A DNA stretch of 64,000 nucleotides from Bacillus sp. ISL-41. Its GTDB lineage: Bacteria; Bacillota; Bacilli; Bacillales; Cytobacillaceae. The notes beneath the pieces were generated by a model, which did no database searches, was not told the DNA's origin, and saw only the letters and a list, made by a program, of their open reading frames with translations. Location of the stretch: assembly GCF_018613235.1 (NCBI RefSeq), contig NZ_JAGGQP010000023.1, positions 62,001 to 126,000 on the forward strand, written 5' to 3'. The number at the start of each line of letters is the position of its first letter. Positions within the stretch are counted from its first letter, which is position 1. The translations under genes and the position numbers were made by a program. Positions 1,188 to 58,135 of the stretch are shown here, one piece after another.

Positions 1188-1344
1188 ATGACGGACAAAA
1201 ACCCGGGAGAATCATGAAAAAGTGTCCGTCATCAAGGTCATGACGGACAAAAACCCGGGAGAATCATGAAAAGGTGTCCGTCATCAGAGTCATGATGGAC
1301 AAAAACTCGAGGGGAATCATGAAAAAGTGTCCATCATCAAGATG
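1188..1344. repeat. Intergenic tandem array A1: three 52-bp units with long inverted arms
   Basis: Units begin at 1188, 1240 and 1292, an exact 52-bp period. Each has a left arm ATGACGGACA and a right arm TGTCCGTCAT spanning 45 bp, with 7 bp between the right arm of one unit and the left arm of the next. In the third unit both arms carry a matching change (ATGATGGACA / TGTCCATCAT), so pairing is kept. The array lies between the convergent 3' ends of selO and the MMPL gene. Four other arrays in the window share this period. Confidence 0.9.
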
Positions 1345-1361
1345 TGGCAGTAGCAGTCACT

Positions 1362-1409
1362 AAAAAAGGCAGTCCCTGAGCTATTCTCGCTCTCAGGACT
1401 GCCTTTTTA
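1362..1409. terminator. Bidirectional terminator between selO and the MMPL gene
   Basis: The hairpin GGCAGTCCCTGAG / CTCAGGACTGCC is flanked by an A run on the left and a T run on the right, so it can end transcription from both converging genes. It abuts the stop codon of the minus-strand gene. Confidence 0.85.
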
Positions 1410-3533
1410 TTATTTACCTTCTACTGCAGCTTCTTTCTGATCTTTTTCAAAGAAGAGAATCAATGCTGGCAGCAGCATGCCGCGGACGAGGAAGGTGTCG
1501 ATCAGGATTCCGACGGCGACGATGAAGCCGAAGACGAACAGGTCGGCGATTGGCATCGTGGTCAGTGCAGCGAATGTCGCGGCCAGGATGACACCGGCTG
1601 ATGAAATCACTCCGCCGGTATTGCGGATCGCGATTTCTAGGGCATCCTTGACTTTGTGTACCTTGCGCTCTTCAATGAATCGGGAGGCTAGGATGATGTT
1701 ATAATCGATTCCCAATGCCACCAGGAAGATGAAGGCGTAGACCGGAACTCGCGAGCTTAATGCATCAAAGCCGAATAAGACGTCGACGAGGAAGATTCCC
1801 AATCCCAGCGCAGATAAGTAGGATAACAGGATCGTTCCCATCATGTAGATGGACATCTTGATCGAACGCGTGAGAGCGTACAAGAGAACTAGAATCAATA
1901 CTGTTTCCAGGAGGACGATTTTTACAATATCGCGGTTATTGATTTCCCGCTCGTCCAAAAGCTTGGCTGTGACTCCGCTATAATATGCTTCTCCATCGAT
2001 CGCAAGCTCCTCCAATAACTCAGGAGTTTCCGAGCGCAAATCACCGATAAAATCAATCGCTTCTGTTGAGTACGGATTCATTGATAATGCTATGCTAAGC
2101 TTCATGGCTTGTGCATCCTCGGACAGAGCGGATACCCGGACAGAGGCAATTTCATCATAGCTTTGCCATTGATCAACGATGGCTTTTGTATCTTCCTCGG
2201 TAAAAGGATCCTCACTGACAACCAGCAATGTCGTCGGGGCCAGTTCCCCTTTGTCATAGCGTGCCTCGACGATTTCATAGCCAACTCGTGAAGGCAGGTC
2301 CTCAGGGAATTTTTTTACCGTATCAAATTCAAAGTCGAGATTGAAAACATTGAAGGCTGTAAGAACTAAAAATACAGAAACAATTCCTCCTGAGATTCCA
2401 GGTTTGTTAACCACGAATCTGGCGACTGGTCCCCAGATTCCGTGCTTGACTTCTGTTTCCTGGCCGTACTTCGGTACCTTCGGCCAGAATGCTTTGCGGC
2501 CAAATAAGGTGAAAAGCGCCGGCAGCAGGGTGACTGAAGCGATCATGATGTAGAACATCGCAATCCCGAAAACAGGCGCGAAGTTCAGGTAATCGCGGAA
2601 ATCAGCGAAGAACAGGATGAGCATCGCGGCGAGAACAGTACCTCCTGCGAAAAACACAGGCTCAGCTGTTGCACGCATCGCATATTTCATTGCTTCGTAT
2701 TTGCTCTCATATTTGTTCAGCTCCTCGCGGTAACGGGAGAAGACGAACAATGAATAGTCAATGACCGCTGCAAAAAGCAGGATGCTCATGATGGATGAAG
2801 TCTGGCTGCTGACTTCCAGGCCGCCTGCACCCATTAGTGCTACACTTTGATTCACGACCTGATAGACGATGACAGTCGCGAGCAGCGGGATGATCGCAAG
2901 CAACGGCGAACGATAAATGACAATCAATAAGATCAAAATAATCAGCACGGTTGCAATCAGCAGGACAAAGTCAGCTTGTTCAAAAAGCTTGACGGTGTCT
3001 CCGGCAATCCCGGCTGGACCGGTAATGTAAAACTCGGTGCTTTCAAGGTCTTCGGCAATCTCGTTGCCAGTTTCCAAAGCCTTGTCATTGATTTCGGAAT
3101 ACTGGCTGTTTCCGAGCCCTTTTTCCAGCTCCATAGGCACGATGATGGTCGAACCATCTTCTGAGATAAAACCACCTAAAGCTTGAGGAGGAAGGGCGCT
3201 GATATCAACGATGGTTTCGATGCCGTCAATATCCTCAGCGATGATTCCATTGAGGATTTGCTTGACTTCATCCAGATTGATGTCGCCGTTGTTATTGTGG
3301 AAAACGAGGATTCCCGGTGTTCCTTGTTCATTCGGGAAAAGTTTTTCCGTCTTTTTCTCAGCGATTATCGATTGTGCTTCATCAGGAAGCGATTGGAAAT
3401 TGGTTGTTTTATATTCACTGAGCATTGGCCCTGCACTTAAACCAACCATGAGGACCAGCCAGGCAATGAGCGTGATCCACATTCCCTTCTTTGTTGAAAC
3501 CCAATCAGTGATTGGATGCAATAGCTTTTCCAC
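1410..3533 (-). CDS. MMPL/RND-family transporter
   Basis: A 707-residue membrane protein with the MMPL layout: an N-terminal membrane segment, a ~160-residue extracytoplasmic loop, a block of about five membrane segments (roughly residues 185-345), a second extracytoplasmic loop and a second block of segments (roughly 540-695). The internal duplication and the charged motif SRYREEL after a membrane helix match the YdfJ/YdgH-type MMPL exporters of Bacillus. These are proton-driven exporters of lipids or hydrophobic compounds in other bacteria; the substrate here is unknown. The start is GTG, supported by GGGAGG 7 bases upstream. It appears monocistronic, with the MerR-type regulator 90 bp upstream on the same strand. 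Confidence 0.88.
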   Translation of the reverse strand: MEKLLHPITDWVSTKKGMWITLIAWLVLMVGLSAGPMLSEYKTTNFQSLPDEAQSIIAEKKTEKLFPNEQGTPGILVFHNNNGDINLDEVKQILNGIIAEDIDGIETIVDISALPPQALGGFISEDGSTIIVPMELEKGLGNSQYSEINDKALETGNEIAEDLESTEFYITGPAGIAGDTVKLFEQADFVLLIATVLIILILLIVIYRSPLLAIIPLLATVIVYQVVNQSVALMGAGGLEVSSQTSSIMSILLFAAVIDYSLFVFSRYREELNKYESKYEAMKYAMRATAEPVFFAGGTVLAAMLILFFADFRDYLNFAPVFGIAMFYIMIASVTLLPALFTLFGRKAFWPKVPKYGQETEVKHGIWGPVARFVVNKPGISGGIVSVFLVLTAFNVFNLDFEFDTVKKFPEDLPSRVGYEIVEARYDKGELAPTTLLVVSEDPFTEEDTKAIVDQWQSYDEIASVRVSALSEDAQAMKLSIALSMNPYSTEAIDFIGDLRSETPELLEELAIDGEAYYSGVTAKLLDEREINNRDIVKIVLLETVLILVLLYALTRSIKMSIYMMGTILLSYLSALGLGIFLVDVLFGFDALSSRVPVYAFIFLVALGIDYNIILASRFIEERKVHKVKDALEIAIRNTGGVISSAGVILAATFAALTTMPIADLFVFGFIVAVGILIDTFLVRGMLLPALILFFEKDQKEAAVEGK

Positions 3534-3624
3534 TAGTAAACCTCCCTATTAAGTTTCCAGTCTAATCTTACTACTTTATACATCTGTAAAATCAAGCTAT
3601 TTATATCTTTTCTGTTAATAAAAT

Positions 3625-4497
3625 TCAGCGCATGAACGAGTCATACCATTTATCCCAATCGGGACCGAGGGAGTAGGTGACTGCCTTTGACTCCAGTTTT
3701 GGACAGTCATTAACGCAGCTTCCCCCAACGATGAATCTCAACGATGGATTCATCTGCAGTGTTGAAGATATCCAATCCTCGACATTGACAATCGGGGCCG
3801 GGTTGGTCATGGAAATTGCCACAACGCTGATGTCTTTCATTTTGATCAAATCGGATAATCCATCAAGCGGCGTATTCGGTCCCAAATAGATGACGTCATG
3901 GCCTTTCTTTTTTAAAAATAAGCTGAAGACCATCAAACCGATTTGATGCTGCTCTCCTTCCGGGCAGAACGCCAACACTTTCTGGAGTGCAGGATTTACA
4001 GGGAGGACCCTCAGGAACTGGGTGCAGCGGTTGATGATGAACTGCGAAGCAAAATGCTCCTGGGCAACCGAAATGGCCCCATTCTCCCATTCATCACCAA
4101 CCTTATACAAAACCTGGACTAATATTTGGTGAAACACCTCTTCATAGTCATACAAAGAAAAAGCGAGGTCGGCAATCTGGTTTGCCTCCTGGGTATCAAG
4201 GTTGACCAGTGCCTCGTAAAGCTTTTCTTTTAGCTCACCGTACTTGTCATTTTGTGTTGGAGGCGGGGCGGAGGCCGGAGGGGACTCCTGCAGCATCCTG
4301 ACCGCGTCACTGATTTTCATATTTTTTTCATGAACTTGATTCTTGATCCACTTGAGTGTTTCGAGATCCTTTTCGCTATATAAACGGTGTCCGCCCTCGG
4401 TCCTGGTAGGAGCTACGACATTATATCGGCTTTCCCAGGCCCTGATTGTGACGGCGGGTATATCCAAAAGTTCTGATACTTGCTTGATGCTATACAA
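3625..4497 (-). CDS. MerR-family regulator with cobalamin-binding domain, CarH/LitR-like photoreceptor candidate
   Basis: About 290 residues. The N-terminal MerR helix-turn-helix contains YSIKQVSELLDIPAVTIRAW and the wing TEGGHRLYSEKDL. A Pro-rich linker (~70-85) is followed by a helical cap and a Rossmann cobalamin domain. Two CarH signatures are present: W137-x9-E147-H148 in the cap, and E182-x-H184-x2-G187 (the axial histidine motif), with a GGS loop near the C-terminus. In Thermus CarH, adenosylcobalamin makes a dark tetramer that light breaks. The residue after the Trp is Glu here, where Thermus CarH has His132. I chose a TTG start at 4497 because GGAGG lies 8 bases before it; a GTG 15 bases upstream sits inside that ribosome site region. 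It is divergent from the DUF378 gene across 11-bp repeats. Light control is inferred. Confidence 0.85.
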   Translation of the reverse strand: MYSIKQVSELLDIPAVTIRAWESRYNVVAPTRTEGGHRLYSEKDLETLKWIKNQVHEKNMKISDAVRMLQESPPASAPPPTQNDKYGELKEKLYEALVNLDTQEANQIADLAFSLYDYEEVFHQILVQVLYKVGDEWENGAISVAQEHFASQFIINRCTQFLRVLPVNPALQKVLAFCPEGEQHQIGLMVFSLFLKKKGHDVIYLGPNTPLDGLSDLIKMKDISVVAISMTNPAPIVNVEDWISSTLQMNPSLRFIVGGSCVNDCPKLESKAVTYSLGPDWDKWYDSFMR

Positions 4498-4517
4498 AGT
4501 TTTCACCTCCACTCACC

Positions 4518-4551
4518 AGTATAGAGAAGTTATACAAGAATTACACAACAT
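4518..4551 (-). promoter_or_regulatory. Putative autoregulatory operator/promoter of the CarH-like gene
   Basis: Two 11-bp direct repeats, TTATACAAGAA (4530-4540) and TTACACAACAT (4541-4551), adjoin a possible -10 TATACT on the minus strand (4518-4523). The repeats would lie between that -10 and a poor -35. A weaker third copy (4519-4529) overlaps the -10. CarH operators are 11-bp direct repeats with a TACA core, so self-repression is a reasonable inference. Confidence 0.55.
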
Positions 4552-4594
4552 AAAAGCCGTTAAATCAACACTTTAACAAAATTATATAAAATGT

Positions 4595-4655
4595 TTGCGT
4601 AATTTGTATAGGTTTTGTATAATTAATCTCGAAAGATTATACAAAAATTATACAA
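4595..4655 (+). promoter_or_regulatory. Promoter of the DUF378 gene with four TACA/TGTA-type operator repeats
   Basis: A perfect -10 TATAAT (4618-4623) has TTGCGT 17 bp upstream as a weak -35. TTGTATA occurs at 4604 and 4615 (11-bp spacing) inside the spacer and -10. Downstream, TTATACAA occurs at 4637 and 4648, again 11 bp apart and inverted relative to the first pair. The layout resembles CarH operators that block RNA polymerase binding. Confidence 0.65.
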
Positions 4656-4669
4656 TGGGTGGTGTCAAA

Positions 4670-4867
4670 ATGAAAACGTTGAATTTGGTATCATTAGTAT
4701 TGCTTATTGTCGGCGGTTTAAATTGGCTATTGGTTGGATTATTTGAATGGGATTTAGTCGGCGGCCTTTTCGGAGGCATGGACAGTCCGATCGCAAAAGT
4801 GGTATATATCCTTGTAGGGCTCGCGGCAATATACAGCATCACGCTCTTATCAAAAGTGAATAAATAG
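4670..4867 (+). CDS. DUF378 family small membrane protein
   Basis: A 65-residue protein with two membrane segments (about 4-24 and 42-62) and the DUF378 pattern: N-terminal LNWLLVGLF, the GGMDSPIAKVVYILVGLAA segment, and a short basic tail. The function of the family is not established. The ATG at 4670 is chosen over an upstream in-frame ATG because GGGTGGTG lies just before it and the promoter -10 is at 4618. It is divergent from the CarH-like regulator, and its promoter is covered by the 11-bp repeats, so it is the obvious regulated target. A terminator follows directly. Confidence 0.85.
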   Translation: MKTLNLVSLVLLIVGGLNWLLVGLFEWDLVGGLFGGMDSPIAKVVYILVGLAAIYSITLLSKVNK

Positions 4868-4872
4868 TAGCA

Positions 4873-4906
4873 AGGCGTACAGAAGCTTATCTGTACGCCT
4901 TTTGCT
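4873..4906 (+). terminator. Rho-independent terminator after the DUF378 gene
   Basis: Stem GGCGTACAGA / TCTGTACGCC with a short loop, followed by TTTTGCTT. It lies 6 bp after the stop codon. Confidence 0.85.
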
Positions 4907-4976
4907 TGCATCTTGAATTAACGCCCTGATATCGCTATTCTATAAGAAGTAATCGTCGAAACAGGGGGACCAAGCA

Positions 4977-5153
4977 ATGGATAAAAGAGAAATTGAATAT
5001 AAAATCGTCGAATTGAAAGATGAGTATTTGCAGCTTCAGCATAATCTCGAAAAATTGGAATCTGTAAAAGGAAACCTGCATCCGCTGGAGAAGCGTCTTG
5101 CCGCGATTGAAGAGGAATTGAGCGCGTTGAATACAATGCTGCGTGATCTGTAG
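4977..5153 (+). CDS. SE1832-like small coiled-coil protein
   Basis: A 58-residue soluble protein, MDKREIEYKIVELKDEYLQL..., predicted almost entirely helical with heptads of Leu/Ile and many charged residues. I recognise it as resembling the SE1832 family of short Bacillales proteins of unknown function. AGGGGG lies 7 bases before the ATG, and a terminator follows the stop, so it is a self-contained transcription unit. Family recognition is from memory and moderate; that it is a real gene is well supported by ribosome site, codon use and terminator. Confidence 0.7.
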   Translation: MDKREIEYKIVELKDEYLQLQHNLEKLESVKGNLHPLEKRLAAIEEELSALNTMLRDL

Positions 5154-5159
5154 AATGAC

Positions 5160-5195
5160 AAGCCTGTTCTGAAAAGGAATCAGGCTTTTCTTTTT
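5160..5195 (+). terminator. Terminator after the SE1832-like gene
   Basis: Stem AAGCCTG / CAGGCTT followed by TTCTTTTT, 7 bp after the stop codon. Confidence 0.75.
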
Positions 5196-5324
5196 GCGAA
5201 GGGGGAAGATGCTATAAAATACGCATGAGCCCGAAAAAAATCGAGCTCATGCCTAGAGCAAAAATATCGATCAAAGGTTTAATTAAACCCATTTTTCCCA
5301 TCGGCCATAGCTTTAGGCACTTTC

Positions 5325-5340
5325 AATCAAACGTTTGATT
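5325..5340. promoter_or_regulatory. Perfect 16-bp palindrome, operator-like
   Basis: AATCAAACGTTTGATT is a perfect palindrome lying 21 bp beyond the stop codon of the alanine symporter gene. Palindromes of this form are typical of TetR-family operators, but no TetR gene is nearby and no promoter is evident beside it. The rest of 5200-5361 holds only a hairpin GCATGAGC / GCTCATGC at 5223-5252. Confidence 0.4.
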
Positions 5341-5361
5341 AATATCTTGCACGACGGTCTT

Positions 5362-6822
5362 TTAGGAGGCAAGAGAGCCATCTCTCGGTTTTTGAGTCTT
5401 CTCTTCCCAGAAGTCTGCTCCGTCAATTCCGAGTTTTGCAGGTTTGAAGATAGGGTCCTTGTTTGCTTTTTTCTGTGCTGAGTAGTCTTTTAAGACCTGA
5501 AGAGCTGGTTTTGTAAGCAGCAGGATGACGGAAAGGTTAATCCAGGCCATCATGCCCATTCCAAGATCGCCCATTGCCCAAACGACATCAGCGGTTCGGA
5601 TGCTTCCATAGAAAGTAGCAACAAGCAAGGTAATTTTCAGCAAGTGGTTCATCCAGGCAGATTTCTTACTATTGCCTACCAGATAAGCAAGATTTGTCTC
5701 TGCTTTATAGTAATAAGATAAGAGTGTGGTAAAACAGAAGAAGAATAAGGAAATAGCCATGAAAGAGATTCCGAATGTCGGTAAAGCCGATTCTACGGCG
5801 AGCTGAGTGTAGACAGATGGTTCTGCATTTCCGAGTTTCTCGGTGATCGGCGCCATTCCTTCCGGCTTCACATCGTACATGCCTGTGATCAGGATCATGA
5901 AGGCTGTTGCCGGAGCAATGATCAGCGTATCGATATAAACGGAAAACGCCTGGACCAACCCTTGTTTAGCAGGGTGTGATACTTCTGCTGCGCCTGCCTC
6001 GAATGTTTCACTGCCAATTCCGGCACCATTAGAATAGACGCCTCTTTGGACACCCCATGCTACAGCAGATCCCATTAATCCGCCAAAAGTGGAATTCAAA
6101 TTGAATGCACTTGTGAAAATCAGCGAAAGCACTTCAGGTATCAGAGTATAATTGATGCCAAGGATAATCAAACAGACTAATATGTAGCCAACTGCCATAA
6201 AAGGAACCATTACCTCTGCTGTTTTCGCAATTCTTTTGACACCGCCAAAAATGATGAACCCAAGCAGGACAATGATGACAGCCCCAGTCGCTGCAGGAGA
6301 TAAACCAAAGGCGTTATCCATCGTCAATGCGACGGTATTGGCCTGGACGCCCGGCCATAAATAGCTCATGACCACTAAGGATAAAAGGGCAGAAATCACT
6401 GCGAACGATTTCGATTTCAAGCCATTTTCAATGTAAAACGGTGTGCCTCCGCGATATTTCCCGTTGATTTTCCTTTTATATACTTGAGATAATGTCGTTT
6501 CAATAAAAGAAGTCGCGCTTCCTAACACAGCTGCGATCCACATCCAGAAAACAGCACCAGGACCCCCGAATGCGATGGCCGTAGCGACACCCGCTACATT
6601 GCCTGTCCCGATCCTGCTGCCCAATGACATTGTCAGTGCCTGAAACGAACTGACACCTGCCTTTGAACCCCCGCCTGAGAAGGTCAGTTTGATCATATCT
6701 TTAATGTATCTCACCTGGACAAAACGTGTGATAATCGTGTAAAACAATCCTAATCCCAAAAATGAATAGACTAATATCGAACTCCAAACATACCCGTTCA
6801 ACCAATTTACTATGTCTCCCAT
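5362..6822 (-). CDS. alsT: Alanine/glycine:cation symporter (AGCS family)
   Basis: A 486-residue inner-membrane protein with the AGCS layout: N-terminal GDIVNWLNGYVWS, the signature ALTMSLGSRIGTGNVAGVATAIAFGG in two blocks around residues 65-90, GGVQRGVYSNGAGIGSE-like stretch near 265, and 10-11 membrane segments. It would import alanine or glycine with Na+ or H+. The ATG at 6822 is preferred because GAAGGGAG lies 5 bases before it; an ATG five codons upstream would overlap that ribosome site. It appears monocistronic, with about 360 bp of non-coding sequence upstream. The specific amino acid (alanine, glycine, or glutamine for some AlsT proteins) cannot be read from the sequence. Confidence 0.9.
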   Translation of the reverse strand: MGDIVNWLNGYVWSSILVYSFLGLGLFYTIITRFVQVRYIKDMIKLTFSGGGSKAGVSSFQALTMSLGSRIGTGNVAGVATAIAFGGPGAVFWMWIAAVLGSATSFIETTLSQVYKRKINGKYRGGTPFYIENGLKSKSFAVISALLSLVVMSYLWPGVQANTVALTMDNAFGLSPAATGAVIIVLLGFIIFGGVKRIAKTAEVMVPFMAVGYILVCLIILGINYTLIPEVLSLIFTSAFNLNSTFGGLMGSAVAWGVQRGVYSNGAGIGSETFEAGAAEVSHPAKQGLVQAFSVYIDTLIIAPATAFMILITGMYDVKPEGMAPITEKLGNAEPSVYTQLAVESALPTFGISFMAISLFFFCFTTLLSYYYKAETNLAYLVGNSKKSAWMNHLLKITLLVATFYGSIRTADVVWAMGDLGMGMMAWINLSVILLLTKPALQVLKDYSAQKKANKDPIFKPAKLGIDGADFWEEKTQKPRDGSLAS

Positions 6823-7120: not shown

Positions 7121-7160
7121 AGGCTTGAGCCCGATATAAGGTACCGGACCCAAGCCTATT
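7121..7160 (-). terminator. Terminator of the Gfo/Idh gene
   Basis: Read on the minus strand: AGGCTTGGGTCCGG ... CGGGCTCAAGCCT hairpin followed by CTTTATTTTT. Confidence 0.8.
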
Positions 7161-7184
7161 ATCCTGTTATTAATCTAGGGTGCT

Positions 7185-8261: not shown

Positions 8262-8368
8262 ATATAACACCCCTGTCCAGAATATAGTTTAATAGTAAAT
8301 CCGTGAGGGGAGGAATGTAAATCAATATAGTATAATGATGAAAAATACAATGTAAGGCGGGAGTTGTT

Positions 8369-8869: not shown

Positions 8870-8896
8870 TCTAATAAGCAAGTCTATAAACGAACT

Positions 8897-21049: not shown

Positions 21050-21092
21050 TTTATAGTTGAAAAGCTGGCGCTTAAATTCCCGTGTGGGGAAC

Positions 21093-21450
21093 GATGGATG
21101 TCGCTTTTTTCTGTTCGTGCGTGGTAATGTGCCTCTATAAGGCCGATGGATGTCGCTTTTTTCATGATATGCGAGAAAATGTGCTTCCATAAGGCCGATG
21201 GATGTCGCTTTTTTCTGTTCGTGCGTGGTAATGTGCCTCCATAAGGCCGATGGATAGCGCTTTTTTCATGATACGTGAGAAAAAGTGTCTCCATAAGGCC
21301 GATGGATAGCGCTTTTTTCATGATACGTGAGAAAAAGTGTCTCCATAAAGCCGATGGATAGCGCTTTTTTCATGATACGCGAGAAAAAGTGTCTCCATAA
21401 AGCCGATGGGTGCCGCTTTTTCCAGAACGTGAGCCATATCGCGCCTCTAA
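21093..21450. repeat. Intergenic tandem array A2: seven 52-bp units
   Basis: Units start at 21093, 21145, 21197, 21249, 21301, 21353 and 21405: exactly 52 bp every time. Each carries arms ATGGA and TCCAT spanning 45 bp with 7 bp between units, the same geometry as array A1 although the sequences are unrelated. Some units differ by blocks (TTCTGTTCGTGCG versus TTCATGATACGTG), so two sub-types alternate in the left part. It sits between convergent 3' ends, beyond the MFS terminator. Confidence 0.92.
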
Positions 21451-25043: not shown

Positions 25044-25200
25044 TATAATCTCCCTTAGTATCGATTTTAGCTATATTCGAGAGGTGAGAGAGGAAATCCT
25101 GTTTTGCACAAAATAAAAAAGCATAGGAATGAAATCAAATGCCTCAGTGTTGATACTCTTAAGAATAATACCTATGGTTATGCATTTTAAGGGGCGAAAC

Positions 25201-25788
25201 GCACCCTTATGCAGAGGTAAAACGGCATATAAGGGCACATTTTAGGATGTAAATGCACCCTTATGCAGAGGTAAAGCAACATATAAGGGCACATTTAGGT
25301 TGAAAATGCACCCTTATGCAGAGGTGAAACGGCATATAAGGGTACATTTAGGTTGAAAATGCACCCTTATGCAGAGGTAAAACGGCATATAAGGGCACAT
25401 TTAGGTTATAAACGCACCCTTATGCAGAGGTAAAGCGGCATATAAGGTTACATTTAGGTTGAAAATGTACCCTTATGCAAAGGTAAAGCAACATATAAGG
25501 GCACATTTAGGTTATAAATGCACCCTTATGCAATGGTAAAGCAACATATAAGGGCACATTTAGGTTGTAAATGTACCCTTATGCAGAGGTAAAGCGGCAT
25601 ATAAGGGCACATTTAGGCTGTAAATGCACCCTTATGCAAAGGTAAAGCGGCATATAAGGGTACATTTAGGTTGAAAATGCACCCTTATGCAGAGGTAAAA
25701 CGGCATATAAGGGCACATTTAGGCTGCAAATGCACCCTTATGCAGAGGTAAAACGGCCATATAAGGGCACATTTAGGCTGTAAATGCT
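25201..25788. repeat. Intergenic tandem array A3: eleven 53-bp units
   Basis: Eleven near-identical units, GCACCCTTATGCAGAGGTAA onward, 53 bp each (the first 54). Arms ATAAGGG and CCCTTAT span 35 bp with 18 bp between them, and the 18-bp gap lets the same arms pair the other way as a short-loop hairpin. Variants interchange CA and TA next to the arms. The array starts 9 bp after the stop codon of the minus-strand yhcN-like gene and has no ordinary terminator before it. 25044-25200 holds no gene. Confidence 0.93.
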
Positions 25789-34906: not shown

Positions 34907-35030
34907 ATCTAGTTCATTACCACAATAGAAGGAGGATAAACCTGTAGTTCAAGAAAAAGGAGTGAAAGGGTGTTTCATAGAATAAAATGTACAAGCAATA
35001 AGAGAATCAGGGATTTGGAGAGTGCTAAAA

Positions 35031-36089
35031 GTGCAAAATATACATAAACCATGGATCAAACTGCAGGAATATATCGATGCCGGAGATTATGAAGCTATTA
35101 ACGGACTTCAGGACCGTTGCAATTCAGTGGATCAAACGGCACTTAAGCTGGAGCTTGATTATAAGCTTGGTGTCAACGATGACAACAGGAATGGCGTCGA
35201 GGATATAAATGAGTTCATGTACTTTGATGGGGAAGAGCTGATTGGCTATGTGGGGATTTGCAGCTTTGGCGGTCCTTGGGAAGTGAACGGAATGGTGGAT
35301 CCGGATTATCGGCGCCAGGGTGTTTTCACTAAATTGTTTGAGCTTGCCATGGCTGAATGGAAGCGCCGGGATTCTGGCAGCATGCTGTTGCTGAGTGACC
35401 GCAACTCGGAATCGGGGCAGAAGTTCATCGCTGGTGTTGGTGCGCAATACAAGCATTCGGAATATGAGATGTTTTTGAAAAAAGATGCCCCTGCGGCCAC
35501 TCCGGATCAGTTGGAAGGGATTGTTTTCAGAAAAGCGACGAACGCGGACGCGCACGAGATTGCACGGCAGAACGTGATTTATTTTAACGATGAAGTGGAA
35601 ATCAATTCAGAAGACATGATTTTATCAGAGGAAGACGAAATCAGTTCAGAAGAGATCATTTTGCCTGAGGAAGAGGAATTCAGTTCAGAAGACATGATTT
35701 TGCCTGAGGAAGAGGAATTCAGTTCAGAAGAGAACATTTTGCCAGAGGAAGGGGAATTCAGATCAGAAGACATGATCTTGCCTGAGGAAGAGGAAAGGCG
35801 AGGGATGACTTCTTATCTTGTTGAAAAAGACGGGCAAATCATCGGGAAAGTGAATCTGCAGCTGACAACGAAGCTCGGTGCCATTTTTGGTCTGGGTGTG
35901 TTGCCGGAGCATCGCCGGAAAGGTTACGGCAGGGCGCTTCTTTTGCTGGCCATTGAAAAACTGAAGGAAGCAAATGCAAAAGAAATCATGCTGCAGGTTG
36001 CCGCTGAAAACTCGAATGCGCTTAACCTTTATAAGTCGTGCGGTTTTGAAGAGACGTCTACGATGGATTATTTTGAGCTGAGATCGTGA
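35031..36089 (+). CDS. Double GNAT-domain N-acetyltransferase with internal acidic repeats
   Basis: About 352 residues with two GNAT domains. The first (about 5-150) has VDPDYRRQGVFTKLFE as its acetyl-CoA loop (R-x2-G-x-F). The second (about 162-350) has GVLPEHRRKGYGRALL and a C-terminal ALNLYKSCGFEE. Between the first helix region and first strands of the second domain lie five copies of a 13-residue acidic repeat of the form SSEDMILPEEEEF (residues 192-256), an expansion of a short acidic linker. The start is taken as GTG at 35031, 10 bases after GGAG. Substrate unknown. Single gene ending at a terminator. Confidence 0.85.
   Translation: MQNIHKPWIKLQEYIDAGDYEAINGLQDRCNSVDQTALKLELDYKLGVNDDNRNGVEDINEFMYFDGEELIGYVGICSFGGPWEVNGMVDPDYRRQGVFTKLFELAMAEWKRRDSGSMLLLSDRNSESGQKFIAGVGAQYKHSEYEMFLKKDAPAATPDQLEGIVFRKATNADAHEIARQNVIYFNDEVEINSEDMILSEEDEISSEEIILPEEEEFSSEDMILPEEEEFSSEENILPEEGEFRSEDMILPEEEERRGMTSYLVEKDGQIIGKVNLQLTTKLGAIFGLGVLPEHRRKGYGRALLLLAIEKLKEANAKEIMLQVAAENSNALNLYKSCGFEETSTMDYFELRS
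35604..35798 (+). repeat. Five in-frame 39-bp tandem repeats inside the GNAT gene
   Basis: Five consecutive 39-bp units encode NSEDMILSEEDEI, SSEEIILPEEEEF, SSEDMILPEEEEF, SSEENILPEEGEF and RSEDMILPEEEER. They resemble each other strongly at DNA level (GAATTCAGTTCAGAAGA core), as expected for a slippage- or recombination-prone coding minisatellite. Confidence 0.9.
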
Positions 36090-38575: not shown

Positions 38576-39190
38576 TGACAGATTTGGATGCTGAGGGTGA
38601 AAAGCTGTCAAGAAAAAGAGGTAATCATGTAATCATGACAGGTTTGGGTGCTGAGGGTGAAAAGCTGTCAAGAAAAGAAGGTAATCGTGACAGGTTTGGG
38701 TGCTGAGGGTGAAAAGCTGTCAAGAAAAAGAGGTAATTGTGACAGGTTTGGGTGCTGAGGATGAAAAGCTGTCAAGAAAAAAGGGTAATCGTGACAGGTT
38801 TGGGTGCTGAGGGGGAAAAGCTGTCAAGAAAAGAAGGTAATCGTGACAGGTTTAAGTGCTGAGGGGGAAAAGCTGTCAAGAAAAGAAGGTAATCGTGACA
38901 GGTTTGGGTGGTGAGGGTGAAAAGCTGTCAAGAAAAAGAGGTAATCGTGACAGGTTTGGGTGCTGAGGGTGAAAAGCTGTCACGAAAAAGAGGTAATCGT
39001 GACAGGTTTGAGTGCTGAGGGTTAAAAGCTGTCAAGAAAAGAAGGAAATCGGGACAGGTTTGAGTGCTGAGGGTAAAAAGCTGTCAAGAAAAGAAGGAAA
39101 TCGTGACAGGTTTGTTGCCAAATGGAGAAAAGCTGTCAAAAGAAAGCCGAACTTCAGCCAGGTTTGGCATCAAACGGAGAAAAGCTGTCA
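38576..39190. repeat. Intergenic tandem array A4: about twelve 52-bp units
   Basis: Units begin TGACAGGTTTGGGTGCTGAG; starts at 38636, 38688, 38740, 38792, 38844 and onward are 52 bp apart (the first interval is 60 through an 8-bp duplication, GTAATCAT). Arms TGACAG and CTGTCA span 35 bp with 17 bp between units. The last two units are more diverged. It lies 3' of yceI, beyond its terminator. Apparent reading frames through it are repeat artefacts. 39191-39328 holds the promoter region of the MFS gene. Confidence 0.93.
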
Positions 39191-47344: not shown

Positions 47345-47500
47345 AATAATGACCTTTTTGCTGAATCTTTTGAGCGGGGGAACCAATTTCGATAAAGCAA
47401 CTTTATCTTGGGGTGAATTTTAGCGAATGCAGCTAAAAGGGGATACTCTCAATCCCTAATCCGACAGCTAACTCCGTAAGCGTGAAGAGAGAAGGGTTGA
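47345..47500 (+). promoter_or_regulatory. c-di-AMP (ydaO/yuaA) riboswitch
   Basis: Conserved elements in order: GAGCGGGGGAACCAAT (47372 on), CTTGGGGTGAAT, and GGGATACTCTCAATCCCTAA followed by TCCGACAGCTAACTCCGTAAGCG. These are diagnostic of the ydaO class, an OFF switch for c-di-AMP. It precedes a terminator and a Trk/Ktr potassium transporter gene, the classic target. Confidence 0.93.
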
Positions 47501-52845: not shown

Positions 52846-52904
52846 AATGTTTTTTTCAAGGTAGGTAATCGGTGCAGGAAAACGAATAAAACAATGTTTT
52901 TTCG

Positions 52905-52925
52905 AGGGACGGGAAATCTGTCCCT
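52905..52925 (+). repeat. GGGAC/GTCCC hairpin element, copy 1
   Basis: AGGGAC pairs with GTCCCT, followed by CTGTTTGATAAGGAGG, so it ends at the ribosome site of the next gene. Related copies occur before or after the next genes. Confidence 0.6.
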
Positions 52926-52947
52926 CTGTTTGATAAGGAGGCATAAT

Positions 52948-53754: not shown

Positions 53755-53765
53755 ATGGGATAGTC

Positions 53766-53796
53766 GGGCGGGCTTTTAGCGTCAGAAGCACCGTTC
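53766..53796 (+). repeat. GGGCGG/CCGTTC hairpin element, copy 2
   Basis: GGGCGG pairs with CCGTTC (two G-T pairs), with inner GCTT / AAGC; followed by CTCTGTCT and then the ribosome site of the thioesterase gene. Confidence 0.6.
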
Positions 53797-53823
53797 CTCT
53801 GTCTAAAAAAGAGGGATATCATC

Positions 53824-54279
53824 TTGAAGAAAAAAATTGATGAGTATCAAATTCATGAGAAACACTACGACCAAATTTATGAACAAGTTAAAAATGACCC
53901 GTATGCAAAATCGTTAGGCATTCTGTTAACTAAATTCGAGGCTGGATTTGCAGAGGCAATGCTAGAGGTGCAGGACCATATGGTAAATGCACATGGAACT
54001 GTTCATGGAGCAGTTATGTATGCTTTAGCGGACCATGTATTTTCTGTAGCCTGTAATGCATATGGAAAAACCTCAGTAGGACTATCGACAACCATCCAGT
54101 TTATTGAAGCTGCTCAACCTGGAGACAGAATAGTTGCCCGTGCAACCGAAGTAAGGCGAAACTTCCGTACTGGATTTTACCGCATTGAAATTTTTCATGA
54201 GCAAAGCCTGATCGCAACAATGGAGGCCGTTTCTTACCGTAAGGACCAGTATTTTATCGAACTTGATGAACAAGATTAA
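53824..54279 (+). CDS. PaaI-type hotdog-fold thioesterase
   Basis: 151 residues with the hotdog fold: the VNAHGTVHGAVMYALADHVF segment with the catalytic HG-x-HG-type loop and Asp, and TIQFIEAAQPGDRIVARATEVRR on the second strand pair. It resembles YbgC/PaaI acyl-CoA thioesterases, probably cytoplasmic; substrate unknown. Start TTG, GAGGG 8 bases upstream. Preceded by hairpin copy 2. Confidence 0.9.
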   Translation: MKKKIDEYQIHEKHYDQIYEQVKNDPYAKSLGILLTKFEAGFAEAMLEVQDHMVNAHGTVHGAVMYALADHVFSVACNAYGKTSVGLSTTIQFIEAAQPGDRIVARATEVRRNFRTGFYRIEIFHEQSLIATMEAVSYRKDQYFIELDEQD

Positions 54280-54358
54280 GTATTTTTTAGGTTCAATGCT
54301 GTCATCCCCACTACAAGCGGGACTTGGAGATGGTTTTGATGTAAGATTTGGGCTTGTT

Positions 54359-54379
54359 AGGGGCGGGAGAACTGCCCTC
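54359..54379 (+). repeat. GGGGC/GCCCT hairpin element, copy 3
   Basis: AGGGGC pairs with GCCCTC around GGGAGAACT, followed by TGTCTTGTTAATAAGGAGG. Same position relative to the ribosome site as copies 1 and 2. Confidence 0.6.
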
Positions 54380-54405
54380 TGTCTTGTTAATAAGGAGGAA
54401 TTCCC

Positions 54406-54960
54406 TTGAATTTTATTGCATGGATGATAGTTGCCTGTGAAATTGAGTTTTGGATTGTCATTATCCTGGGGTTGACCCTTCGGTACATTTTTAAGAAGAA
54501 TAGACTCAGCATCTTTTTCCTTGCTCTGACACCGGTGATCGATCTGCTGTTGCTGGCACTTACTAGTTATGATCTTTACCGAGGGGCAACGGCTACCATT
54601 GCACACGGAATCGCGGCCATTTATATCGGCGTTTCGATTGCCTATGGTAAAAGCATGATCAACTGGGCGGATTCGCGTTTCCAATATTATATTTTGAGGA
54701 AAGGTGAAAAGCCTGAACGTTTGAGAGGGAATGAATTTTCCCGAAACGAAAGGAAGAACCTTCTCCGCCATTACGCTGCGTTCTTGATTGGCGGCAGCAT
54801 GCTCGGAGTGATCTTTTACCTGGTGAATGACCCGGCAAGGACGGAGAGCCTATTCGCTGTCTTGAAAACTTGGGGATTTGTTCTCGCCATTGATACTGCG
54901 ATAACAGCGAGTTACTTTATTTGGCCGAAAAAGGAAAAAGGAACAAGCAAAATGGGTTAG
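54406..54960 (+). CDS. Hypothetical integral membrane protein
   Basis: 184 residues with about five membrane helices (5-25, 34-52, 60-78, 120-139, 150-172) and a charged central loop (RKGEKPERLRGNEFSRNERKNLL). Resembles the YmcC-type proteins of Bacillus by layout, but the family is uncertain. TTG start with AAGGAGG 8 bases upstream. Hairpin copies lie on both sides. Confidence 0.78.
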   Translation: MNFIAWMIVACEIEFWIVIILGLTLRYIFKKNRLSIFFLALTPVIDLLLLALTSYDLYRGATATIAHGIAAIYIGVSIAYGKSMINWADSRFQYYILRKGEKPERLRGNEFSRNERKNLLRHYAAFLIGGSMLGVIFYLVNDPARTESLFAVLKTWGFVLAIDTAITASYFIWPKKEKGTSKMG

Positions 54961-55031
54961 GGCGGGACAAAGTGTTATGGTTCCTAAGGAATAGTGAGAA
55001 TTTGGACGTTTTTATGTGGAAGAACCGTCCC
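54960..55031 (+). repeat. GGGCGG/CCGTCC hairpin element, copy 4
   Basis: GGGCGGGAC and GTCCC-type arm CCGTCCC, about 55 nt apart, followed by CTCTGTCT as in copies 2 and 3. Here no plus-strand gene follows, so it is a 3' element of 54406-54960. Confidence 0.55.
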
Positions 55032-55119
55032 TCTGTCTCCGAACCAGTGAGTTAGTTATTGATTTTGCCATATTGATTTATGATGATTTGTTGATGTAGA
55101 TGAAACAAAAAGTGAACTG

Positions 55120-55605
55120 TTAGGGATTACTTTCTCTATTGTCTAAAAATCTAATTCCCTCAATACATCCTTTAACAAGTAAAAAAGTAAATGAAAGAAC
55201 ACCAAAGGTTACATAACCATTCCAGCCCTTGTTGTATTTCACTAAATTTGTATTTTTTTCAAGCCAATTCTCAAAAAGTGTCATTGGCCCGCTAAAAAGG
55301 ATTACACTTAAAATAGTTTTGAATGGTTTCATTTTATAGGTGAATTGATTGTAAATGACACATGCTAAGGGAAATAATATGTAAAGGAACACAATATTGG
55401 AATCGAAAAATTTAGGGAAATAGCGATGTGGATATTGCAAATATTTAGTCTTGATAACGGGTCCATCAAATATTGTAGAAACAAAAGTTTTTATAAAAAA
55501 AATAAGGTACCAATCCTTTAAATTCCTCTTCTTGCGAGATAAAAAAAATATGCTTCCCCCGATTCCGATTGTGGTCAATATGTTCAATATTGTTCTGTCC
55601 TTCAT
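55120..55605 (-). CDS. CBO0543 family membrane protein
   Basis: 161 residues, about five membrane helices, with the LKDWYLIFFIKTFVSTIFD and SGPMTLFENWLEKNTNLVKYNKGWNGYV-like stretches (quoted in parts: SGPMTLFENWLEK, NLVKYNKGWN) that mark the CBO0543 group of Clostridia and Bacilli. Function unknown. CAGGAGG precedes the ATG. AT content is higher than the genes to the left. Confidence 0.82.
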   Translation of the reverse strand: MKDRTILNILTTIGIGGSIFFLSRKKRNLKDWYLIFFIKTFVSTIFDGPVIKTKYLQYPHRYFPKFFDSNIVFLYILFPLACVIYNQFTYKMKPFKTILSVILFSGPMTLFENWLEKNTNLVKYNKGWNGYVTFGVLSFTFLLVKGCIEGIRFLDNRESNP

Positions 55606-56007
55606 ACAGCATACACCTCCTGTAAATAAGGTGTCCTTTTTCTAAGGGAATTATGAAGTGGAAAAGTTATTTCTAATTTCAACAAACACGTGTAAAAGTG
55701 AAGGTCGTATTGACCAACTCCAATTAGTCTGCCTACTCATTGATGCCAGATTGAAGGTATACCCGATAAAAGTTGGTTAAATGGTATTTTTAAAGAGGTA
55801 GCCAAGAACAGAGTGATTTCCTTAAAATCAGCTGAGACCTAATTAATGAGCAGGAACTTATTTTACCTTATGATTTTGAAGTGAAAGGTTTTATCTGTGA
55901 TGAGGACTATTACTGTGAAATAGGAGAGTTAAATTTGTAAAATCAACAGGAAAAAGCATATATATTAAATCAGAATAGTTTTAAAACATCTGAAAATAGG
56001 AGGAATT
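55606..56007. other. Gap with a possible gene remnant
   Basis: About 400 bp. A frame from 55836 to 55940 reads DLINEQELILPYDFEVKGFI, then CDEDYYCEIGELNL and a stop, with no start codon or ribosome site and a stop just upstream. It looks like the 3' end of a lost gene. The rest shows nothing clear. Confidence 0.4.
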
Positions 56008-56364
56008 ATGAACTCAAAACCAATTTTAAATCAAATCGGAACGACATTTATTCCTGTTCGTGACATTGAAAAGGCACGGGACTGGTATTGTGACATATTA
56101 GGTTTACCATCCGATGGTGAGATTTTATTTGGCCATCTTTACATATTGCCTATGAACGGAACGGGTATTGTATTAGACAGCAAAATATTTTCAGAGGAAA
56201 ATATATATAAAGCTCCACCTTTTCATTTAAATACAAATAATATAGAACAAGCTTTTCAATACATGAAAAGTAAAAATGTAGAGATTACAACAGAAATTGA
56301 AAATAATCATTGGTTCAATTTTAAAGATTTAGACGGTAATCATTTAATGATTTGTCAATGTTAG
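56008..56364 (+). CDS. VOC superfamily protein
   Basis: 118 residues, beta-alpha-beta modules typical of glyoxalase/bleomycin-resistance folds: FIPVRDIEKARDWYCDILGLP at the start and NHWFNFKDLDGNHLMICQC at the end. Unlike its VOC neighbour at 22914 it is AT-rich in codon use, a sign of acquisition. AGGAGG lies 8 bases before the ATG. Ligand unknown. Confidence 0.85.
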   Translation: MNSKPILNQIGTTFIPVRDIEKARDWYCDILGLPSDGEILFGHLYILPMNGTGIVLDSKIFSEENIYKAPPFHLNTNNIEQAFQYMKSKNVEITTEIENNHWFNFKDLDGNHLMICQC

Positions 56365-56380
56365 TTGATTTACTACAGTA

Positions 56381-56435
56381 GGGACGGATTTGGTGCCTTA
56401 AGCTATTGAATAAAATGGGGCGGGGAAACCGTCCC
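56381..56435 (+). repeat. GGGACGG/CCGTCCC hairpin element, copy 5
   Basis: GGGACGG (56381) pairs with CCGTCCC (56429), followed by TTGTTTTTTG, so this copy can serve as a terminator of the VOC gene. Confidence 0.6.
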
Positions 56436-56571
56436 TTGTTTTTTGCCTCGGCAGGGAAGGTGTTGAAGGAAATCATGAATAAAACTTGTGAAGAGAAAAT
56501 ATATAATGAATAAATGTGTTTGGACAAACAACTGTCTTACGATAAATTCAGAACTATAAGGTGCTGATCTT

Positions 56572-56751
56572 TTGAATAAGAATAGGAATTTGAATTTAGT
56601 CATTTTTGCGCTTTTCTGTTTGCTTATAGTTCTATTTGTGCATGTTGTGCTTCATACAAAGGTTTACGTCGTGTATAGCGCAAGTCTTGGTTCGATCTTC
56701 ATGATTGGACTGGTCATTTTTCTCATTGTATTCCTTTATTTTTATGGGTGA
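56572..56751 (+). CDS. Hypothetical 59-residue membrane protein
   Basis: MNKNRNLNLVIFALFCLLIV... has two membrane helices (about 8-26 and 37-57) with a short outside loop. TTG start, AAGGTG 8 bases upstream. No other gene in the interval. No family recognised. Confidence 0.6.
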   Translation: MNKNRNLNLVIFALFCLLIVLFVHVVLHTKVYVVYSASLGSIFMIGLVIFLIVFLYFYG

Positions 56752-56832
56752 AAATAGTGAAATAGTGACCTGGGAATAACTAACCTTTGAAAATGTTATA
56801 AACGGAAGAATTGATCCATAGTCTCTATTGAA

Positions 56833-56859
56833 AAAAGCTCCCTAGCAATAGGGGGCTTT
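56833..56859 (-). terminator. Terminator of the minus-strand GNAT gene
   Basis: On the minus strand AAAGCCCCCTA / TAGGGAGCTTT, followed by TTTCAATAG. Confidence 0.75.
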
Positions 56860-56862
56860 CCA

Positions 56863-57390
56863 TTATGTATTTCTAAGAACGGTTATGAATCCGTCCAGAA
56901 TCTGATGGCTTATTTTAAATCCTTTGCTTTGGTAAAAATTAAGGGCAGCATCATTTCCGTTAGAGACATAGATGAACTGGTCATGAACGTCGTTAAAGGA
57001 ATCAAGCCATTCCTGTGATTTTTCATAAAGGACCGAACCAATGCCCATGCTGCGATACCCTTCTTTGATATAAAATTGCGAAAGGCAGCCGACATCATTC
57101 CCTTTTACAGATTCCATGTCAAAAAAAACAGCAAACTCATTAGAATACACTTCCTTCGGGGACACATTGCTATACACGTATCCGACAGCTTCATCGCCAT
57201 CCATTGCGGCAATGATCTGATTGGCTTTCGCATTTTTAACAGAAGGGACCATTCTCGTTTCAAAGCTCATGCCATCGAAAAGCTCAGGGCGGATCGTCGC
57301 TAATGATTTCTGGTAAACCATCAACTCATTGCAGAGATCTTTCACAATGCTAATCTGCTCTTCTGATATTAGTTCATAAGTAATTGCCAT
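56863..57390 (-). CDS. GNAT family N-acetyltransferase
   Basis: 175 residues, single GNAT domain: the acetyl-CoA loop is in FYIKEGYRSMGIGSVLYEKSQEW (R-x2-G-I-G), with NGNDAALNFYQSKGFKISH as the last conserved segment. Substrate unknown. GGGAG precedes the ATG. Single gene, divergent from the 72-residue protein. Confidence 0.87.
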   Translation of the reverse strand: MAITYELISEEQISIVKDLCNELMVYQKSLATIRPELFDGMSFETRMVPSVKNAKANQIIAAMDGDEAVGYVYSNVSPKEVYSNEFAVFFDMESVKGNDVGCLSQFYIKEGYRSMGIGSVLYEKSQEWLDSFNDVHDQFIYVSNGNDAALNFYQSKGFKISHQILDGFITVLRNT

Positions 57391-57533
57391 TATCCAACTC
57401 CCTTTCTTACCGGATTCTTATTCGGATTATATCGTAAAACCTCGATTCTTGATAACCAAATCTATTTTCTTCCTGACAGCTTGTCATGATTAGGTCACAT
57501 GGTTCATAAACTCTATCAAAAGGGGGTGTAGAG

Positions 57534-57752
57534 TTGAACCGTGTTTCGAACAGAGTGGATTATTATTTGGAAAATAAATGTCTCTTAAGTGCGAATGTAA
57601 AGCAGTGGGAGCAATATATTGCTGCATTGAGGGCCTGCAATACAGTCACGATAAACAAAAAGGAATACATGGTAGACAAAATAAATATGGTTCATGATCC
57701 TGCAACCATCGTGTTGAAAGTCAATATTCAACCACTTAAGGTTTATATTTAA
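57534..57752 (+). CDS. Hypothetical 72-residue protein
   Basis: Small soluble protein: MNRVSNRVDYYLENKCLLSA..., mixed alpha/beta with a helical middle (NVKQWEQYIAALRACN) and beta ending. TTG start 6-8 bases after AAAGGGGGTG. Terminator and then array A5 follow. No family recognised. Confidence 0.66.
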   Translation: MNRVSNRVDYYLENKCLLSANVKQWEQYIAALRACNTVTINKKEYMVDKINMVHDPATIVLKVNIQPLKVYI

Positions 57753-57780
57753 GTATCCTTTATGGATGCTTTTTTATTTT
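57752..57780 (+). terminator. Terminator after the 72-residue gene
   Basis: AGTATCC pairs with GGATGCT, then a long T run. Confidence 0.8.
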
Positions 57781-57857
57781 TTTAAGGATTTCTAACATGA
57801 GATATGGGGGACTGCAGAACCTTCAGAAGCCCTACAGAATTCACATTGGACATGAGC

Positions 57858-58135
57858 CCGAAAAGAAGAGGAGCCATGGATTTCGGTAACAAGGTGGAGG
57901 AACATGTGCTTGAAAAGAGGAGAGGCCGTGATTTTCGGTAACAAGTTGGAGCAACATGTGCCCGAAAAGAAGAGAGGCCGTGGATTTCGGTAACAAGTTG
58001 GAGCAACATGTGCCCGAAAAGAGGAGGAGCCGTGGATTTCGGTAACAAGTTGGAGCAACATGTGCCCGAAAAGAGGAGAGGCCGTGGATTTCGGTAACAA
58101 GTTGGAGCAACATGTGCCCGAAAAGAGGAGGAGCT
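57858..58135. repeat. Intergenic tandem array A5: five to six 52-bp units
   Basis: Units TTTCGGTAACAAGTTGGAGC onward start at 57881, 57932, 57985, 58037 and 58089 (51, 53, 52, 52 bp). Arms TTTCGG and CCGAAA span 35 bp with 17 bp between units, the same geometry as array A4 with unrelated sequence. It lies 3' of the 72-residue gene, past its terminator. Long frames on the minus strand here are artefacts. Confidence 0.92.

What the first reader, a model, noticed from the sequence alone, without database searches (positions are those of the whole stretch)
1188..58135. Five unrelated intergenic arrays share a 52-53 bp clock and two fixed hairpin geometries
Seen directly: arrays A1 (1188-1344), A2 (21093-21450), A3 (25201-25788), A4 (38576-39190) and A5 (57858-58135) have no common sequence, yet their periods are 52, 52, 53, 52 and 52 bp. 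Each unit has inverted arms. In A1 and A2 the arms span 45 bp with 7 bp between units (45+7). In A4 and A5 they span 35 bp with 17 bp between (35+17), and A3 is 35+18. 52 bp is about five helical turns and the two spans differ by one turn. Every array is immediately 3' of a gene, in A2, A4 and A5 beyond its terminator. Inference: something measures DNA or RNA length here (a bound protein dimer, a replication or recombination mechanism), while sequence is free to drift in step. I know of no description of such a family.
Basis: partly seen in the sequence, partly recalled or inferred. Interest (0 to 1): 0.88.

Follow-up and report, generated by a model that had tools for sequence, protein, structure and literature searches.

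The report
Helix-phased 52-bp palindrome arrays
Short 52-bp DNA repeats that sit just behind genes in this Bacillus-like bacterium belong to a known but unexplained class, and they share a hidden design, A/T-rich stretches once per turn of the double helix and often mirror-image arms, which suggests they are places where DNA is bent or wrapped by a protein.

Summary
The five arrays, their 52/52/53/52/52 bp periods and arm spans are real. The "constant 52 nt, variable sequence" class is already published for Bacillus (PMC8161180, read in full).

New here: (1) 17 of 38 arrays from unbiased stretches have TGTC...GACA at the stem base. Two such cores 52 bp apart occur in 69 of 397 genomes of the order, against one hit for the reversed pattern. 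(2) In such arrays stem hexamers differ between arrays yet stay complementary and diverge 3-fold less than loop or linker. (3) A+T content oscillates every 10.4 bp in TGTC and non-TGTC arrays, in published units of other species, and in the 20-21/40-42 bp class. (4) No consistent G-U wobble asymmetry supports an RNA hairpin.

Best reading: a DNA-level bend/wrap element at gene 3' ends, most likely a gyrase or nucleoid-protein site working like E. coli BIME-2. No protein was tested. A4 and A5 alone do not show the 10.4-bp signal.

The parts
1188..1337 (.). Array A1: three 45/46-bp elements (ATGA[CT]GGACA-N25/26-TGTCC[GA]TCAT) with 7-bp spacers, 25 bp after the stop of a SelO-like gene and before a terminator-like hairpin, between convergent genes
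1223..1249 (.). one exact 27-bp core TGTC-N6-N7-N6-GACA of A1 (the next exact core is 1275-1301)
1363..1409 (.). terminator-like hairpin with T run beyond A1, between the convergent genes
   Evidence: read by eye
21092..21450 (.). Array A2: 52-bp units in a 104-bp super-repeat, arms TCCAT-N7-ATGGA, between convergent genes, after a terminator-like hairpin behind an MFS gene (hairpin read by eye)
25197..25788 (.). Array A3: about 11 units of 53 bp, arms ATAAGGGNNCATTTA / TAAATGNACCCTTAT; 10 bp after the stop of a Spore_YhcN_YlaJ gene on the minus strand
38576..39190 (.). Array A4: about 12 units of 52 bp, AAAGC-TGTC...GACA-GGTTT; after a terminator-like hairpin behind a YceI-domain gene (hairpin read by eye)
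38666..39108 (.). nine exact TGTC-N19-GACA cores of A4 at steps of 52
57850..58135 (.). Array A5: about 5.4 units of 52 bp, arms TTTCGG/CCGAAA; after a 72-aa ORF (57534-57752, +) and a terminator-like hairpin (read by eye)

Best explanation
The arrays are DNA-level architectural sites at gene 3' ends. Each 52-bp unit is five turns of the helix. A/T-rich minor grooves recur every 10.4 bp, in many arrays with a fixed phase to a dyad flanked by symmetric arms, so tandem units form a continuous helix-phased track that favours bending or wrapping round a protein. The most likely reader is DNA gyrase (or a gyrase-like or nucleoid wrapping protein), which would resolve the positive supercoils that pile up behind genes, especially between convergent ones. 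It would thus work like E. coli BIME-2. Shown here: helical phasing, the 27+25 geometry in about half of unbiased arrays, stem covariation and constraint in TGTC arrays, 3'/convergent placement. Inferred: bending or wrapping in the cell, gyrase, and the supercoiling role.
For: Phasing: 109 non-redundant TGTC units phased on the core give A+T spectrum power 28.1 at 10.4 bp against at most 1.42 at the other harmonics printed (1-12; first of all 26). The variable loop and linker columns alone give coherent power 8.97 against a permutation 95% point of 0.73. Thirty non-TGTC arrays of 51-53 bp give 3.60 against 1.03 shuffled, z 13.8; random intergenic 52-mers 1.20, coding 1.02; the 13 non-TGTC units that could be aligned on a dyad peak at the same harmonic, and their printed profile looks in phase. 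Published units of other species: mean 3.00 against 1.03, z 9.5, 27 units, 9 of which rank this harmonic first. Non-coding 19-22 and 39-43 bp arrays: 2.67 (n 23) and 4.01 (n 10) against about 1; coding 19-22 bp arrays 1.09 (n 6). Placement: 41 of 131 arrays between convergent genes against 94 of 531 intergenic regions (p 0.001), 9 divergent against 121 (p 1e-5). 32 of 62 co-directional arrays lie beyond a predicted terminator, 30 do not. No wobble excess on the sense strand in 60 arrays: GT 103, AC 72, control 548:421, odds 1.10, p 0.62. Literature, passages read: the E. coli gyrase motif has two periodic GC flanks whose size agrees with the 35-52 bp thought to wrap round GyrA CTDs, and BIME-2 elements behave as transcription-independent gyrase sites (PMC6379681). 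Gyrases of three species, B. anthracis included, have 10-11 bp periodic GC preferences (PMC12324340).
Against: No protein, strain or occupancy data. A4 and A5 of the window do not show the signal singly (p 0.30 and 0.19). A wedge model gives little more static curvature than tandem copies of shuffled units (6.14 against 5.47 degrees per turn, parameters recalled), so bendability rather than fixed curvature would have to matter. Phasing does not by itself explain why stem bases stay complementary, and only 18 of 38 unbiased arrays pair at 8 or more of 10 positions. Arrays are patchy (328 of 397 genomes of the order lack the TGTC double core), while gyrase is universal (recalled). Arrays are purine-rich on the sense strand in 59 of 81 co-directional cases, and one subset gave a sense-strand GT excess (65:42 against 296:310, p 0.027), which an RNA role would predict. 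In E. coli, gyrase attraction to downstream regions seemed not hard-wired in sequence (PMC6379681 passage).
Confidence: 0.45

Rival explanations
1. RNA hairpin arrays: transcribed 3' regions fold into strings of 10-bp stem-loops that stabilise mRNA, act as sponges, or are processed to small RNAs.
For: Stems covary: 526 of 702 pairs Watson-Crick against 249 after shuffling arms between arrays. Stem hexamers diverge 3-fold less than loops. The purine-rich strand is the sense strand in 59 of 81. Subset GT excess p 0.027. The Bacillus coagulans satellites are reported as transcribed (PMC8625621 passages).
Against: The larger set shows no GT over AC excess beyond control (p 0.62). 32 of 62 lie beyond a predicted terminator. 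The 10.4-bp A+T phasing and the 20.5/41/52 series of periods have no reason at RNA level. No Rfam family hits the arrays at gathering score.
Confidence: 0.18
2. Neutral or selfish satellites: hairpin-assisted slippage, unequal exchange and ectopic copying make and homogenise arrays, and the helical period reflects the amplifying machinery rather than a use.
For: Copy number varies at the A1 locus between species, from 1 (G017, G009, G014) to 6 and 7 (G020, G005). Sister species differ hugely, e.g. 454 against 5 double cores in one genus. Copies ride on a dispersed element in G167.
Against: Stem hexamers are 3-fold and TGTC/GACA about 9-fold less diverged than the loop in interior units (the TGTC figure is biased by the exact-core selection). 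Array borders prefer the ends of complete 45-nt elements (49 of 132 left, 36 of 130 right against 13.5% expected; 25 and 25 end at the hairpin edge, the rest elsewhere). Non-random placement.
Confidence: 0.21
3. Mobile REP/BIME-type elements moved by a RAYT (Y1 tyrosine transposase).
For: Palindromes with a constant tetranucleotide, 3' of genes, clustered, similar to tagged REPs (PMC3733652). Y1_Tnp proteins occur in 18 of 21 genomes of the genus, two in this genome.
Against: Two of the three genomes richest in the TGTCCGTCAT hairpin, G006 (76) and G016 (53), have no Y1_Tnp match. The tag is paired, not unpaired. No target-site duplication seen by eye in the borders printed.
Confidence: 0.06
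4. Tandem operators for a sequence-specific dimeric DNA-binding protein.
For: TGTC/GACA half-sites at fixed spacing; the hairpin TGTCCRTCAT-N7-ATGAYGGACA is found in 18 of 21 genomes of the genus.
Against: 74 different stem hexamers among 117 arrays, several in one genome; a single protein would not read them by sequence.
Confidence: 0.1

Closest known systems
52-nt tandem repeats (satellites) of Bacillus, Subirana and Messeguer (PMC8161180)
   Same: Period 51-53, several families per genome, non-coding, species-specific sequence, copy number differs between strains; 7 of 27 printed units carry the TGTC core at 7 or more of 8 letters.
   Different: That paper names short species signals, often with their reverse in the same repeat, but no shared geometry, covariation or helical phasing of the 52-nt units; these are added here. 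The 2020 J. Bacteriol. paper was not held.
E. coli BIME-2 / REP arrays
   Same: Palindromic, tandem, intergenic, REPs 3' of genes and between convergent genes (PMC3733652, section 15 read); BIME-2 are gyrase sites in vivo (PMC6379681 passages).
   Different: No unpaired GTAG/CGTC tag, different unit and length, no RAYT needed in two array-rich genomes, no gyrase data.
Gyrase wrapping motif (about 130 bp, periodic GC flanks)
   Same: 10-11 bp periodic A+T/G+C alternation.
   Different: Central cleavage motif not tested; the arrays are continuous tracks, often with a palindromic unit.
20-21 nt bacterial satellites (PMC8161180)
   Same: Same 10.4-bp A+T phasing.
   Different: Two or four turns instead of five; palindromic arms not examined.

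Membership tests
52-nt Bacillus satellites | repeat length 51-53 with varied sequence, non-coding | tested here: met
52-nt Bacillus satellites | at least four repeats in 800 nt (that paper's search rule) | tested here: met
   A2-A5 met by TRF copy number; A1 has three units and is below the rule
52-nt Bacillus satellites | copy number differs between related genomes | tested here: met
   A1 locus 1 to 7 units; A4 locus
REP/BIME (tagged) | unpaired GTAG or CGTC tag beside a 20-40 bp palindrome | tested here: not met
   TGTC is paired with GACA; definition from PMC3733652 abstract and section 6, which notes CGTC often varies to TGTC
REP/BIME (tagged) | associated RAYT (Y1_Tnp) in the genome | tested here: inconclusive
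   18 of 21 genomes of the genus match, two matches in this genome; none in G006, G015, G016, of which G006 and G016 are array-rich
REP/BIME (tagged) | located 3' of genes, convergent or co-directional | tested here: met
gyrase strong sites | periodic GC/AT at 10-11 bp over the wrapped flanks | tested here: met
   for the class; not for A4, A5 singly
gyrase strong sites | gyrase cleavage or binding in vivo | not testable with these tools
   needs Topo-seq
CRISPR arrays | identical repeats with unique spacers | tested here: not met
   linkers are repeated within arrays; cas genes not searched
Rfam RNA families | match at gathering score | tested here: not met
   only a c-di-AMP riboswitch in the window

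The most novel reading that the evidence does not exclude
The two published satellite classes of these bacteria (20-21 and 52 nt) are one system: helix-phased DNA tracks, 2, 4 or 5 turns per unit, that evolve under selection for A/T phasing and dyad symmetry more than for sequence, so that a wrapping protein (gyrase or an unknown one) can load at gene 3' ends. Covarying arms mean that symmetry or a transient hairpin/cruciform, not base identity, is read.
Probability: 0.28. Interest if true: 0.85.

Novelty: new member of a known kind. Interest (0 to 1): 0.62.

Why it matters
The 52-nt satellites have been an open puzzle: constant size, no common sequence. The rules found here (27+25 geometry, covarying stem, 10.4-bp phase) explain why 52 could be special, tie the class to the 21-nt class, and turn a curiosity into a test: do arrays attract gyrase or another wrapping protein, and do they insulate neighbouring genes from supercoils? 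If so, many Bacillaceae carry hundreds of hard-wired topology sites that no annotation shows.

Tried and rejected
RAYT mobility: disfavoured because array-rich G006 and G016 lack Y1_Tnp, though 18 of 21 genomes, this one included, have it. Target-site duplications or clean empty sites: none seen by eye in the borders printed. At the A1 locus, 13 of 30 loci were read and the other 17 were tried on the other strand (6 of them lack the left gene). At least one element: G017, G009, G014 (1), G013, G016 (2), G019 (about 2.5), here (3), G006 (at least 3, contig end), G004 (several, contig end), G011 (5), G020 (6), G005 (7). None: G018, G007, G001, G002, G010, G012, G015, G008, whose downstream sequence differs where I read it. 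At the A4 locus arrays follow the gene in G000, G017, G004, G011, G001, G014, G020, a remnant in G012; G016, G013, G006, G018, G009, G007, G002 have other downstream sequence (one search had shown the wrong side for three minus-strand loci, mended). RNA wobble: (34:19, control 104:81, no test run), p 0.20, p 0.027, p 0.62. Static curvature: not clearly above tandem shuffles. Universal TGTC tag: rejected, 17 of 38 unbiased arrays (own 3 of 8, G019 8 of 13, G011 6 of 11, other genera 0 of 6), 7 of 27 published units. Universal 10-7-10 stem: weaker than I first thought, since pattern-chosen arrays inflate the 122 of 163; in unbiased arrays 9 of 17 TGTC and 9 of 21 non-TGTC pair at 8 or more of 10, shuffles 14 of 760. 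I lowered the best explanation from 0.47 to 0.45, the novel case from 0.30 to 0.28 and raised the RNA and neutral rivals by 0.01 each for this. Within-array double changes: 1 paired and 4 unpaired, 3.1 expected by independence, so pairing is not restored at this time scale. Border analysis was first biased by unit extension and redone. Structure prediction and fold search were not used: no protein is implicated.
Full report
OBSERVATION. The five arrays exist with the stated periods and arm spans. They are part of a larger set: 22 tandem repeats of period 52 or 53 in 431.5 kb of this genome (window plus 20 stretches, 14 of which had been chosen because they matched A1). In stretches not chosen for arrays, 52-53 bp dominates non-coding tandem repeats in this genome (8 of 11) and in G019 (13 of 19), shares the field with 20-22 and 40-42 bp in G011 (11 of 34) and is a minority in 40 genomes of other genera (7 of 27); coding repeats have other periods, mostly multiples of three.

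ALREADY IN PRINT. PMC8161180 (all five parts read) describes 52-nt tandem repeats with constant size and variable sequence in about 30% of the Bacillus species studied there, with short species-specific signals, often with their reverse in the same repeat, and only partial conservation between strains. PMC8625621 (passages) reports transcripts from them in B. coagulans. The 2020 founding paper is not held. Searches showed me no paper, in listings or passages read, on shared geometry, covariation or helical phasing of these repeats; subscription journals are mostly outside that library.

ONE GEOMETRY. A1-family arrays are TGTCCGTCAT-N7-ATGACGGACA plus about 25 bp. With a loop of 5 to 9 allowed, every match printed for the genus has loop 7 (the printed list is only part of the hits). 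A4 is AAAGC-TGTC-N19-GACA-G[GC]TTT plus linker. Both place TGTC and GACA 27 bp end to end, so 45+7 and 35+17 are the same unit. In 38 arrays from unbiased stretches, 9 of 17 TGTC and 9 of 21 non-TGTC arrays pair at 8 or more of 10 positions in the 10-7-10 frame, against 14 of 760 shuffled units. In the wider set of 163, which contains pattern-chosen arrays, it is 122, and 121 of those have an odd loop, the dyad falling on a base.

HOW WIDE. Two cores 52 bp apart, 16 fixed letters, occur in 69 of 397 genomes and 30 of 135 genera of the order (292 in this genome, up to 584), against one hit for the reversed control. In a sample of 250 genomes of the class, 5 have it: two of this genus and three of one family outside the order. 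It names Mesobacillus, Neobacillus, Cytobacillus, Litchfieldia, Robertmurraya, Evansella, Heyndrickxia, Ureibacillus, Caldibacillus, Pallidibacillus, Thalassobacillus, Virgibacillus, Texcoconibacillus and Trichococcus among others. The window is probably from a Bacillaceae genome, perhaps Mesobacillus (inference). The tag is not universal: 17 of 38 unbiased arrays, 7 of 27 published units at 7 or more of 8 letters; some arrays keep a 27-bp stem with GGTC/GACC (L092) or GGTC/GCCC (L019) instead.

CONSTRAINT AND COVARIATION. Among 117 arrays chosen by exact cores there are 74 different left hexamers; 526 of 702 arm pairs are Watson-Crick against a mean of 249 (maximum 308) when arms are shuffled between arrays. 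In 742 interior units of 116 arrays, divergence from the array consensus is 1.3-1.5% at TGTC/GACA (biased low by selection), 4.2-4.3% in the hexamers, 13.5% in the loop and 13.2% in mid-linker.

HELICAL PHASE. The A+T content of 109 non-redundant TGTC units (under 75% identity) peaks every 10.4 bp. The same holds for 30 non-TGTC arrays; the 13 of them that could be aligned on a dyad peak at the same harmonic, with profiles that look in phase with the TGTC set. It holds for 27 published units of other species on average, 9 of them ranking it first and several, e.g. one of cellulosilyticus and one of kochii, showing nothing. It holds for non-coding arrays of 19-22 and 39-43 bp, while six coding arrays of 21 bp lack it. 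Random intergenic 52-mers show a trace (1.20), coding none (1.02). In the window A1, A2 and A3 show it singly (p 0.019, 0.007, below 0.001), A4 and A5 do not (p 0.30, 0.19). A wedge model gives little excess of static curvature over tandem shuffled units, so the pattern fits bendability or wrapping better than fixed bends.

PLACE AND DYNAMICS. Of 131 arrays between called genes, 81 are co-directional, 41 convergent and 9 divergent (32 more lay at contig or locus edges), against 316/94/121 for intergenic regions over 100 bp in a largely overlapping set that includes the array regions: convergent enriched (p 0.001), divergent depleted (p 1e-5). The median distance to the upstream stop codon is 91 bp in 62 co-directional cases; 32 of these have a predicted terminator before the array and 30 do not, by a crude rule. 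At the A1 locus the number of elements runs from 1 (G017, G009, G014) through 3 (here) to 6 and 7 (G020, G005), and eight genomes have none. At the A4 locus, arrays in seven species share the place but not all arm letters. Borders favour the ends of complete 45-nt elements: 49 of 132 left, 36 of 130 right, 13.5% expected; a further 25 and 25 end at the hairpin edge and the rest elsewhere.

MECHANISM. A fixed number of helical turns, A/T phase tied to a dyad, many sequences serving equally, little strand preference in the stems, and a seat behind genes point to DNA that is bent or wrapped. Gyrase is the best candidate: its E. coli motif has periodic GC flanks, BIME-2 palindrome arrays are gyrase sites (PMC6379681, passages), and B. 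anthracis gyrase has the 10-11 bp preference too (PMC12324340, passages). Plectoneme pinning by curved DNA (PMC6301789, passages) is a protein-free alternative of the same kind, weakened by the wedge result. What remains unexplained is why arms stay complementary base by base. A transient hairpin or cruciform, or a reader that needs exact two-fold symmetry, would do it; the RNA alternative is disfavoured but alive.

LIMITS. Arrays are related by descent, and I only thinned them at 75% identity. Many arrays were gathered by the TGTC pattern; where that matters I give the unbiased count. Gene calls come from a home-made codon model and missed at least one small ORF. No binding, transcription or mutant data were available.

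Noticed in passing
window:47069-47181: A repeat of about 40 bp (TTTATTGGCGA twice per unit) lies just upstream of a c-di-AMP riboswitch (47349-47496); it looks like the 20-21/40-42 bp class.
   Followed up: partly
window:35592-35796: 39-bp repeats encoding an acidic stretch inside the ORF 35022-36089.
   Followed up: no
   Followed up: partly
L242, L292, L312, L313: Records titled Chryseobacterium sp. ISL-80 carry typical Bacillaceae 52-bp arrays, so the record name is probably wrong.
   Followed up: no
L370-L389 (G011): This species carries more 20-22 and 40-42 bp non-coding arrays (18 of 34) than 52-53 bp ones (11 of 34), so both classes coexist in one genus.
   Followed up: partly
window:21092-21421: A2 alternates two unit types, giving a 104-bp super-repeat; other arrays were also scored at 104 or 156 bp.
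   Followed up: no
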